From Pseudomonas sp. SLFW (GTDB lineage: Bacteria; Pseudomonadota; Gammaproteobacteria; Pseudomonadales; Pseudomonadaceae), in the NCBI RefSeq assembly GCF_009905615.1, contig NZ_JAAAKW010000006.1, forward strand, positions 124,001 through 188,000: a DNA stretch of 64,000 bases, written 5' to 3'. Shown here piece by piece: positions 30,200-32,490 of this stretch. The notes below the pieces were generated by a model. It had not been told where the DNA came from and ran no database searches. It was given only the letters and a program-made list of their open reading frames with translations. Every line of letters starts with the position of its first letter. The stretch's first letter is position 1. A program made the translations under genes and the position numbers.

Positions 30200-30835
30200 T
30201 TGATCAAAAAAACACCAAAGCTCGGTTATACCCATCCCGCTGCACCTCTCCAGCATCCGCAAACAACTTATCCACAGCAAAACCCACAGCAATTGGGGGA
30301 AGTCAAATCTCGTCTGTGCAAAAAACCAGGAAAAACCGTGACTTATTTAACCTGGTGGGAATGAGACATGGCTGATTATATTTTGATCAAACCTCCGAAA
30401 GGCACGGAATATATGGCTCACAGAGGGTCGCGAACACCTTATCCACAGAATCGCCAACAGAGATTGTGCGCAACTTCGCGCAATAAGCTCATGACTGTGG
30501 AAAAGAGTATTGACTGCTGAGATCCAGAGAACTGAAAAGCTTAATCGTCAGACAAACGTCGGATTGATCAATATTTGCACAATTGCTTTAAAGCCCCGTG
30601 TTATAGGGCCCGTAGAGAATAGCGAACATCTTATCCACATAGACACGCACAAAGAATGTGGGCAGAACTGCGCGCAATTTCGAGTTGGCTGTGGAGAAAA
30701 AACCGTTTAAACACCGCGAGATAGGTCGGTTAATTTTTAACCTTCGACTTGTAAGCCACGCAATACAAGGCCTGCAGAAATGGCTGAACAGTTTATCCAC
30801 AGGTGGGTTAGCAGGGATTGTGGGTATGTGGACAG
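30200..30835. other. DnaA-box array (four-unit degenerate tandem repeat)
   Basis: Four perfect DnaA boxes TTATCCACA, all in the same orientation, lie at 30268-30276, 30439-30447, 30631-30639 and 30793-30801 (spacing 171, 192 and 162). An AT-rich palindrome precedes each by 56-68 bases: TTGATCAA at 30200, 30383 and 30564, and GGTTAATTTTTAACC at 30728. After each box lies an inverted, imperfect box: TGTGCAAAA, TGTGGAAAA, TGTGGAGAA and TGTGGACAG at 30315, 30496, 30690 and 30827. Units two and three also share GCGCAAT 31-33 bases after the box. There is no gene in this 830-base stretch. It resembles DnaA-binding control loci such as E. coli datA; the function is inference. Confidence 0.8.
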
Positions 30836-30926: not shown

Positions 30927-31124
30927 ATGTACGAATGGACTCCCTTTTCTCCCAAAGTAATTCTCGAAGCGAATCGCCGGCTATCCCAGCGTAAACAAGG
31001 AACCTCTTTCGCACTGCCTGCGGAGCTGACAGGAATCTTCAACTTCAGGCCGAAGACTACCGAGGAACTTAGCGAAGCATTCCGGGCGGCTTCTCGAAAG
31101 CTTAGACAAGGGACCCAAGCGTAA
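30927..31124 (+). CDS. Small protein of unknown function (module gene 1)
   Basis: A 65-residue protein (MYEWTPFSPKVILEANRRLS...) preceded by a good ribosome site (GAGGAATTCACCC). It is basic, with no signal peptide or membrane segment. The C-terminal part (TTEELSEAFRAASRKLRQGT) looks helical. Its stop overlaps the next start as TAATG, so the two genes are coupled. I do not recognise the family. It lies directly after the DnaA-box array and is the only recent-looking insertion between gbcA and the etf genes. Confidence 0.65.
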   Translation: MYEWTPFSPKVILEANRRLSQRKQGTSFALPAELTGIFNFRPKTTEELSEAFRAASRKLRQGTQA

Positions 31125-31638
31125 TGAACGCGCGCTACAACCACATTTTCAACGCGCTGGTCGCCGACGAAGACGACATTCTTGGACAATTGGCTTATGC
31201 CGCCTATAAGCGCCAAAAAATTGAGTTCATTCAAGCTTTCAAAGACAAGAACGGCACCGATCCAGAGGACAAGGTCTTGTTCCATTCCACGACATCAGCA
31301 ACGGGCCTTGCCAGCTGGAAAACTACCGCACCCAAGCCGCAAAGCTTGTAAAGGCGTTTTCCGAGGCGTCGCTAGCCTCCGAAGTGGACGGGCTCCGACA
31401 ATTTTATTCAGAGAAAGCCAGCAATGAGATCCGCTCGGCCAGACCAGGATTCTGGAAAGGTATATCACAGAGCGTTTTGGGGTCTGGAGCGTTCACCCTC
31501 TTGATCGGATGTCTGGTGTTCTTCACCTGGAGCCTCAAGCAAGGCCCTCGCCACGTGATAGAGAAGGTTTTCGATGTGACCATCGTCGATATCGTGTCCA
31601 GCGGGCCGACAGTTGCCGTGGATGATCTGCAACTCTAA
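31124..31638 (+). pseudogene. Unknown membrane-anchored protein, frameshifted (module gene 2)
   Basis: The first part, MNARYNHIFNALVADEDDIL..., is read from 31124 and would end at 31351 in its own frame. Around 31283-31293 (TTCCATTCCACGACATC) the sequence shifts frame: adding one T after CAT gives ...VLFHFHDISNGPCQLENYRT, continuing open to 31638. The restored protein is about 171 residues with one membrane segment near the C-terminus (GAFTLLIGCLVFFTWSLK). I do not recognise the family. It may be a recent pseudogene or a sequencing error in a short T run. It is translationally coupled to the 65-residue gene. Confidence 0.6.
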
Positions 31639-31686: not shown

Positions 31687-32490
31687 TTAACGCACCACTC
31701 CCTCCTCCACCAACAACTTCAAAATCGCCGCAGCGCCTTCCTGGGGGCTTACGCCTTTAAGCACTTGCCCGCCACCGCCGCTGGCTTTTGCCGTCGCCGC
31801 TTTCATCCGGTCCGCTCCGCTCTTCGCCTTGATCACTTTCAAGCGTTTCGGCCGAGGTTTGGCCGGGGTCAGTTCGGCGCCTGTGAATAACTCGTCGATG
31901 GTGACTTCAATGTCTTCCACGTCCAGCGTGCCGCGTTGTGCCGGGCCGTAGGCACTTTGACGCGGTTTCGGCGCGGCGTTATCCACAGTGGCGAGAAACG
32001 GCAGACGAACCTTCAGGCGGCGACGCTGACCCCGTGGCAACGCCTGGAGCACCTGAGCGCTGCCGTTGCTGATGGACTCCACTTCAGCCATCCCCACCAC
32101 CAGTGGCCAGCCGAGCTTTTCGGCGAGCAGGTAGGGCAGCATGCCGGAGCCTTCGCCGGTTTCGGCTTGAGTGCCCGCCAGCACCAGCTGTACGCCGGAT
32201 TCGCGAATGTAATCGGCCAGCCCTGGCAGCGCATCGGCGCCTTCGGGCTGATCGAGGACGTGCAGTTCTTTCAGGCCCATACCGAGATAGGCACGCAGCG
32301 CGGGCTCTTCGGCATTGCCGGCGTGCAGCACGTGCAAGTTATCCCCAGCCAGTTGCAGGCCCAGCTCAACCGCACGGGCATCCTGTTCGGCGCGGCGTGG
32401 ACGCCGCGAGGTCGGGTGCGCGCCAATGGAAACGAGGCTGATGACGTGCAGAGCGGCTTTATCCACAGGCAGTTTTTTGTCAGGCAGCAT
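31687..32490 (-). CDS. etfB: Electron transfer flavoprotein beta subunit (dimethylglycine pathway)
   Basis: A 267-residue ETF small subunit. The start ATG at 32490 lies inside the last codons of etfA (11-base overlap). The family segment GEGSGMLPYLLAEKLGWPLV and the AMP-proximal LPRGQRRRLKVRLPFLATV are visible. The C-terminus is unusually long and rich in Lys and Gly before GVSPQEGAAAILKLLVEEG. ETF takes electrons from the dimethylglycine demethylase and passes them to the quinone pool. Two perfect DnaA boxes fall in this gene, at 31979 and 32459. Confidence 0.9.
   Translation of the reverse strand: MLPDKKLPVDKAALHVISLVSIGAHPTSRRPRRAEQDARAVELGLQLAGDNLHVLHAGNAEEPALRAYLGMGLKELHVLDQPEGADALPGLADYIRESGVQLVLAGTQAETGEGSGMLPYLLAEKLGWPLVVGMAEVESISNGSAQVLQALPRGQRRRLKVRLPFLATVDNAAPKPRQSAYGPAQRGTLDVEDIEVTIDELFTGAELTPAKPRPKRLKVIKAKSGADRMKAATAKASGGGGQVLKGVSPQEGAAAILKLLVEEGVVR

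What the first reader, a model, noticed from the sequence alone, without database searches (positions are those of the whole stretch)
30200..30835. Array of perfect DnaA boxes between gbcA and a small gene module
Four exact TTATCCACA sequences in one orientation lie at 30268, 30439, 30631 and 30793, and three more at 31979, 32459 and 33195. By chance an exact 9-mer should occur about 0.5 times on both strands of 64 kb of equal base composition, and I noticed no perfect copies elsewhere in the window. An imperfect box in the opposite direction follows each of the first four. The region has no gene and looks like a control locus similar in concept to datA or DARS of E. coli. It may titrate or reactivate DnaA and so influence replication timing. 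Pseudomonas has no such locus that I know of.
Basis: partly seen in the sequence, partly recalled or inferred. Interest (0 to 1): 0.82.

Follow-up and report, generated by a model that had tools for sequence, protein, structure and literature searches.

The report
Tandem DnaA-Fis replication-control array in Pseudomonas
A non-coding stretch near the replication origin of Pseudomonas carries three to five copies of a precisely spaced landing pad for the replication starter protein DnaA and, probably, the DNA-bending protein Fis; it looks like a previously undescribed control site for when these bacteria copy their chromosome.

Summary
In detail: seven exact TTATCCACA lie on one strand of the window (0.15 expected). 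Only the first four form a structure; the other three lie in electron-transfer-flavoprotein genes and lack its parts.

The four are tandem units of a locus kept between gbcA and etf: 29 of 36 genus genomes matched, 0 of 21 from other genera. In 103 distinct arrays the 120-195 bp box distances fall in seven clusters 10-11 bp apart, so boxes keep one face of the helix. A Fis-type site starts exactly 65 bp before the box in 179 of 184 middle and 102 of 103 last units. The best second DnaA-like site is inverted at +26; a weaker one lies at +12. The E. coli DARS1/DARS2 cores, as I identify them, have the same 12/14 spacing. The module also occurs at two other Pseudomonas loci, which fit DARS better than the array does; changing either gap by one base left no match.

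Best reading: a tandem DARS-type DnaA/Fis control site, a new variant of a known kind. Whether it activates, inactivates or merely holds DnaA cannot be told from sequence.

The parts
30200..30835 (+). whole array of four tandem units in the spacer after gbcA; 171, 192 and 162 bp between successive boxes
30268..30276 (+). unit 1 exact DnaA box (position III of the core). No Fis-type match between -70 and -56 in this unit
30280..30288 (+). unit 1 weak DnaA-like site at +12 (AAACCCACA, 6 of 9)
30294..30302 (-). unit 1 inverted site at +26, degraded (5 of 9)
30374..30388 (.). unit 2 Fis-type site GATTATATTTTGATC at -65
30439..30447 (+). unit 2 exact DnaA box
30465..30473 (-). unit 2 inverted DnaA-like site at +26 (TTGCGCACA, 6 of 9); the +12 site is TCGCCAACA at 30451-30459 (5 of 9)
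30496..30504 (-). additional inverted box TTTTCCACA (1 mismatch) at +57
30566..30580 (.). unit 3 Fis-type site GATCAATATTTGCAC at -65
30631..30639 (+). unit 3 exact DnaA box
30657..30665 (-). unit 3 inverted DnaA-like site at +26 (CTGCCCACA, 6 of 9); the +12 site is ACACGCACA at 30643-30651 (5 of 9)
30690..30698 (-). additional inverted box TTCTCCACA (1 mismatch) at +59
30728..30742 (.). unit 4 Fis-type site GGTTAATTTTTAACC at -65
30793..30801 (+). unit 4 exact DnaA box
30819..30827 (-). unit 4 inverted DnaA-like site at +26 (ATACCCACA, 7 of 9); the +12 position (GGGTTAGCA, 3 of 9) is not box-like

Best explanation
The stretch is a non-coding DnaA-control site made of tandem copies of one protein-binding module. 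Each module has a Fis-type site 65 bp upstream, one perfect DnaA box, a weak same-direction site 12 bp on, and an inverted site 14 bp further on. This is the spacing of the DARS core of E. coli. In E. coli, facing DnaA molecules on such a core make each other release ADP and so become active again, with help from Fis and IHF at DARS2. I propose that the Pseudomonas module does the same: DnaA nucleates on the perfect box, spreads to the weak sites and meets a facing DnaA; Fis bends the DNA. The tandem array, whose units stay on one helical face, would let neighbouring units cooperate. It would be the large origin-proximal member of a set whose other members have one or two modules. Shown here: anatomy, conservation, spacing, phasing and position. 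Inferred: binding by DnaA and Fis. Inferred by analogy only: the direction of the effect.
For: TTATCCACA is listed as the high-affinity DnaA box of P. putida (table passage of PMC4285127). Array matched in 29 of 36 genus genomes, own included, between gbcA and etf where flanks could be read. Box distances of 120-195 bp in 105 arrays (103 distinct) occupy seven clusters in 10-11 bp steps; random sets of as many distinct spacings reached that phase coherence in 0 of 20,000 draws. Fis-type consensus at exactly -65 in 179/184 middle and 102/103 last units; first units: 76 of 101 at -66 and 19 at -65; averages over all offsets are 0.9-1.2%. Column use in middle units: G 182/184, Y 180, R 182, A/T-rich centre, Y 183, R 184, C 184, both letters in use at each Y and R. 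Unbiased offset scan: the inverted site at +26 is the best second site in first, middle and last units (at least 6 of 9 in 95, 98 and 99%), +12 the next in first units. E. coli DARS1 and DARS2 regions show + 14 - 12 - spacing (reversed strand), i.e. 0, +12, +26 inverted when turned round. The same module with the Fis-type site at -65 at two further loci: alpha-type (8 of 11 at -65, 2 at -66) and beta (8 of 8); beta has the same two neighbour genes in 8 of 8 and alpha a YigZ-like neighbour in 10 of 11. Strict core pattern in 49 of 59 genus genomes, reversed control 0; first gap one base longer, or second one base shorter: 0 of 59 each. Array 326-1117 kb from dnaA in the 10 one-contig chromosomes measured, 8 of them at 356-649 kb.
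Against: In array middle and last units the +12 site is weak (mean 4.2-4.3 of 9; GCGCCAACA), and in unit 4 of the window it is not box-like, whereas in E. coli this position is the perfect or near-perfect one. The perfect box is at position III in Pseudomonas, not II. In the window's own genome the strict core pattern finds only alpha and beta, no array unit. The 21 extra boxes that some arrays carry 54-66 bp after another lack both the -65 site and the +26 site. IHF, needed at DARS2, has no convincing site (53 of 268 intervals with at most one mismatch against 34.5 in single-base shuffles). The degenerate Fis consensus is recalled; the stricter published one fits only 98/184 middle, 21/103 last and 37/101 first units at -65/-66. 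Seven of 36 genus genomes gave no array match. At alpha the second box lies 183-203 bp on, including 186-187, which is off the array's helical steps. No E. coli DARS or datA neighbour gene lies beside alpha or beta in the 4-7 kb stretches searched. No binding or activity data.
Confidence: 0.47

Rival explanations
1. datA-like inactivation or titration site: DnaA-ATP loads on same-direction boxes about 150-193 bp apart, bending brings them together, and DnaA-bound ATP is hydrolysed, or DnaA is simply held, soon after the region is replicated.
For: The E. coli datA region has an exact box and TTATTCACA in the same direction 162 bp apart with a perfect IHF consensus between, like the 150-193 bp spacing here. 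The array is nearer to dnaA than the alpha and beta loci located in 9 of 10 chromosomes (5.9-9.2% of the chromosome; in G029, 17.1%, beta is nearer), and datA is origin-proximal (recalled). Several perfect boxes per array. Non-consensus but conserved flanking sites would suit cooperative ATP-DnaA binding.
Against: No convincing IHF site, which datA requires. The module is shared with alpha and beta, whose 12/14 core is DARS-like. The datA region itself does not show that core.
Confidence: 0.33
2. A DnaA/Fis chromosome-organising or segregation site, with no direct role in the DnaA cycle.
For: Long phased nucleoprotein arrays can serve organisation (general knowledge). Exact DnaA boxes crowd in the origin half of the chromosome: 160 of 165 in G019.
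Against: The 12/14 core geometry is that of DARS-type sites and is kept to the base.
Confidence: 0.1
3. Promoter or regulatory region of a neighbouring gene, or a regulatory RNA.
For: In the window a small gene starts at 30927, 126 bp after the end of the last box.
Against: The spacer separates the 3' ends of gbcA and etf, which converge; in 32 of 48 loci with both flanks read it is under 1.1 kb. The small protein was found only in L001 and L009 of the 30 short loci searched for it. No Rfam match in the array.
Confidence: 0.05
4. A second chromosomal replication origin.
For: Two autonomously replicating elements were reported from P. aeruginosa (passage of PMC4403523); I could not place the second.
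Against: Box layout unlike the probable oriC upstream of dnaA in this genome. The neighbours gbcA and etf are metabolic genes.
Confidence: 0.03

Closest known systems
DARS1 and DARS2 of Escherichia coli (DnaA-reactivating sequences)
   Same: Three-site core with 12 and 14 bp start-to-start spacing and one site inverted; a Fis-consensus site on the same side of the core as the nearer of two matches near the DARS2 core; intergenic
   Different: Tandem array of mostly 3-5 units; perfect box at position III, not II; +12 site weak in array units; Fis-type site at -65 rather than about -125 (my arithmetic); no IHF consensus; other gene neighbourhood
datA of Escherichia coli
   Same: Same-direction boxes 162 bp apart; between converging transcription units; origin-proximal (recalled for datA)
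   Different: No convincing IHF site; modules carry the DARS-type core and a Fis-type site; mostly 3-5 boxes in helical phase
probable oriC of the same genome (upstream of dnaA, L031)
   Same: Several exact DnaA boxes
   Different: Box spacing and orientation differ; perfect IHF consensus there, none with up to one mismatch in the window array

Membership tests
DARS | Core of three DnaA boxes, box I opposite to II and III, fixed spacing (passages of PMC5742627) | tested here: inconclusive
   Spacing and orientation match to the base. At alpha and beta the pattern is met. In the window the +12 sites have 6, 5, 5 and 3 of 9 matches and the +26 sites 5, 6, 6 and 7 of 9, so full boxes are not there by a one-mismatch standard.
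DARS | Fis site needed (DARS2) | tested here: met
   Sequence only: Fis-type consensus at -65 in units 2, 3 and 4 of the window and in 97-99% of middle and last units. Degenerate consensus recalled; the stricter published one fits fewer. Binding not shown.
DARS | IHF site needed (DARS2) | tested here: not met
   Consensus with at most one mismatch in 53 of 268 intervals against 34.5 in shuffles, none in the window array
DARS | Preferential binding of ADP-DnaA and stimulation of ADP release | not testable with these tools
   needs protein assays
datA | DnaA boxes 2 and 3 with an IHF site between, spacing important (passages of PMC4585315); same direction and 162 bp apart in K-12 | tested here: not met
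   Direction and distance are like it; the IHF site is not convincing
datA | datA-dependent hydrolysis of DnaA-bound ATP | not testable with these tools
   needs protein assays
oriC | DnaA boxes next to a duplex-unwinding element, active as replication start | not tested
   Layout differs from the probable oriC of this genome; unwinding and replication not examined

The most novel reading that the evidence does not exclude
Pseudomonas controls replication timing with a three-locus set built from one DnaA-Fis module: two small DARS-like sites about 11-16% of the chromosome from oriC, and a phased multi-module array at about 6-9% that combines the DARS core with datA-like looping, so that one architecture serves both reactivation and inactivation of DnaA depending on Fis and growth phase.
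Probability: 0.25. Interest if true: 0.88.

Novelty: new variant of a known kind. Interest (0 to 1): 0.74.

Why it matters
Control of DnaA activity by chromosomal sites outside the origin is worked out in E. coli and its near relatives. A base-exact DnaA/Fis module at three loci across Pseudomonas would extend that logic to another major group. It gives defined deletions for testing whether titration or nucleotide switching sets initiation timing. It also suggests a searchable DARS core grammar (12/14 spacing): 8 of 273 other gammaproteobacterial genomes matched it with no control match, four of them with three perfect boxes.

Tried and rejected
Canonical IHF sites: scanned, weak excess only. 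Regulatory RNA: no Rfam match in the array. A base-paired stem in the conserved GCC...GGCC stretch about 39 to 23 bp before the box: no covariation that stands out from relatedness. Plasmid-derived element: no plasmid match. E. coli DARS/datA synteny for alpha and beta: no orthologous neighbour; two 26-27% matches to uvrB at beta loci are probably another helicase. Literature for a Pseudomonas datA/DARS locus: none seen in the listings (open-licence papers only), nor in the passages read; no paper was read whole, and subscription papers were not searchable. Orientation relative to dnaA (array towards it in 10 of 10, alpha away in 8 of 8, beta away in 10 of 10) is given little weight, because inversions symmetric about the origin preserve it.

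Rows dropped and limits: the array analysis used 106 of 147 loci, those with a gbcA or etf match; L030 (second locus of genome G016) and L031-L034 were left out beforehand, L071 afterwards. Two arrays were entered twice through two collections and were removed for the 103 distinct ones. The phase test took only distances of 120-195 bp; the short ones (54-66, 105-107) and gaps over 200 bp were left out. The arrays are related by descent, so its odds are not true probabilities. The 244 of 298 genomes include pairs at other places (for example in gidB-like coding sequence, named from recall), so that figure is only an upper bound. Locus types were assigned by sequence likeness; neighbours were checked at 19 fetched loci only, and L174, counted as alpha-type, lies among urease genes instead (urease named from recall of the sequences). 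Which E. coli boxes are the DARS and datA ones is my reading: the regions were chosen from recall and annotation, and the passages give no coordinates.

Full report
Observation. The window has seven exact TTATCCACA, all on the + strand, where 0.15 are expected. Four lie at 30268, 30439, 30631 and 30793 in the spacer after gbcA; three lie in etf reading frames at 31979, 32459 and 33195. The four share longer context and align as tandem units; the coding three have no Fis-type site and no partner boxes. The genome (6.49 Mb, 55 contigs) has 101 exact boxes against 32 for the reversed pattern. Thirty-eight of the 100 listed sit in 127 kb around dnaA, where 2 are expected.

Conservation. blastn with the 747-bp spacer matched 29 of 36 genus genomes (own included) and none of 21 from other genera. 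Where flanks could be read the array lies between the 3' ends of gbcA and etf, which converge. Both flanks were read in 48 loci: the spacer is under 1.1 kb in 32 and 1.25-3.8 kb in 16, the window's among them. A looser pair search hit 244 of 298 genus genomes with no control match, but includes other loci.

Phasing. In 105 arrays (103 distinct) with 2 to 5 boxes, the distances of 120-195 bp between successive boxes are 128, 139, 149-150, 159-162, 169-172, 181-183 and 192-193 only. The best-fitting period over all these intervals is 10.74 bp; sets of as many distinct spacings drawn at random from 120-195 reached the observed coherence in 0 of 20,000 draws. The arrays are related by descent, so this is not a true probability, but length changes have been kept almost only in whole helical turns. 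Shorter distances (54-66 and 105-107 bp) and gaps over 200 bp were outside this test.

Anatomy of a unit. (1) A Fis-type site starts at -65: 179/184 middle and 102/103 last units; of 101 first units 76 have it at -66 and 19 at -65; averages over all offsets are 0.9-1.2%. Column composition follows the Fis rule (recalled), with G and C 14 bp apart nearly invariant, both letters used at each Y and R, and an A/T-rich centre. Unit 4 of the window, GGTTAATTTTTAACC, keeps the rule with a different sequence. Unit 1 of the window fails it. The stricter published consensus (passage of PMC4585315) fits 98/184 middle and 21/103 last units. (2) In an unbiased scan of every offset on both strands, the best second DnaA-like site is inverted at +26 in first, middle and last units; +12 on the same strand comes next in first units but is weak in middle and last ones. 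The 21 extra boxes, 54-66 bp after another box, have neither.

Comparison with E. coli. In K-12 sequence fetched here, the regions I take for DARS1 and DARS2 show boxes spaced 14 and 12 bp, the first opposite to the other two; turned round this is 0, +12, +26 inverted, the unit's geometry. The region of datA has same-direction boxes 162 bp apart with a perfect IHF consensus between them. The definitions of DARS and datA come from passages of PMC5742627, PMC8682772 and PMC4585315; PMC5742627 states that the core spacing is the same at DARS1 and DARS2. The array has no convincing IHF site.

Two more loci. A strict core pattern matched 49 of 59 genus genomes with no control match; lengthening the first gap or shortening the second by one base gave 0 of 59 each. 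By sequence the matches fall mostly into three types: units of the array, a locus alpha (G000:C22:5942) and a locus beta (G000:C4:5296). Of 11 alpha-type loci fetched, 10 lie beside a YigZ-like gene, the window's genome included; L174 lies among urease genes instead. The YigZ family score is under the curated cut-off. All 8 beta loci lie between a TIGR03862 flavoprotein gene and a second conserved gene. The Fis-type site is again at -65: alpha-type 8 of 11, plus 2 at -66; beta 8 of 8. Nine of the 11 alpha-type loci have a second same-direction box 183-203 bp on. In the window's own genome the strict pattern finds only alpha and beta; the array's units there are more degraded at +12 and +26. 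In chromosomes held as one contig the array is 326-1117 kb from dnaA (10 genomes; 5.9-9.2% of the chromosome in nine), alpha 530-862 kb in seven of eight (2389 kb in G029), beta 644-994 kb in 10 of 10.

Across the class, 8 of 273 other genomes matched the strict core pattern, with no control match; four of them have three perfect boxes in the 12/14 layout.

Interpretation. Binding by DnaA is inferred from the exact box, given as the high-affinity box of P. putida (passage of PMC4285127), and from its conservation; binding by Fis from the column rule. The direction is open. I favour a DARS-type role because the base-exact core and the Fis-type site are shared with two small loci. I keep a datA-like role as a close second because of the array's position and box spacing. 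It is not filed as a member of DARS or datA: the IHF feature was tested and not met, and the +12 site of array units is weak.

Noticed in passing
G019 whole chromosome; G000:C12:84666-211718: Exact DnaA boxes crowd in the origin half of the chromosome: in G019 only 5 of 165 lie in the 51% of the chromosome between 1.95 and 5.36 Mb, around the point opposite dnaA; in the window's genome 38 of the 100 listed lie in 127 kb around dnaA (intervals chosen after seeing the lists). This could be a genome-wide titration gradient.
   Followed up: partly
31124-31638: The small gene after the array is split by a frame change in the window (75 aa and 84 aa pieces), while the homologue in L009 is one 172-aa frame with a hydrophobic stretch near the C-terminus; no Pfam match for the window's pieces and no NCBIfam match for the L009 protein.
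   Followed up: partly
30927-31124: 65-aa ORF directly downstream of the array, 70% identical to one in L009, without a family match; found in only 2 of the 30 short loci searched.
   Followed up: partly
31979-31987: An exact DnaA box inside the etf gene recurs in the same coding context in several relatives (GCGTTATCCACAG); it may be protein-coding constraint or a further DnaA site.
   Followed up: no
alpha-type loci L157, L158, L159, L161, L163, L165, L167, L170, L172: Nine of 11 alpha-type loci have a second exact box 183-203 bp after the first in the same direction, so alpha may often be a two-unit version of the array; not all of these distances fit the array's helical steps.
   Followed up: partly
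L174 (G014:C1:896500-903000): A DARS-like core among urease genes in a small genome (3.7 Mb) that gave no array match.
   Followed up: no
about 39 to 23 bp before each box (for example 30592-30608): Conserved dyad GCC...A/T-rich...GGCC between the Fis-type site and the DnaA box; no covariation support, binding partner unknown.
   Followed up: partly
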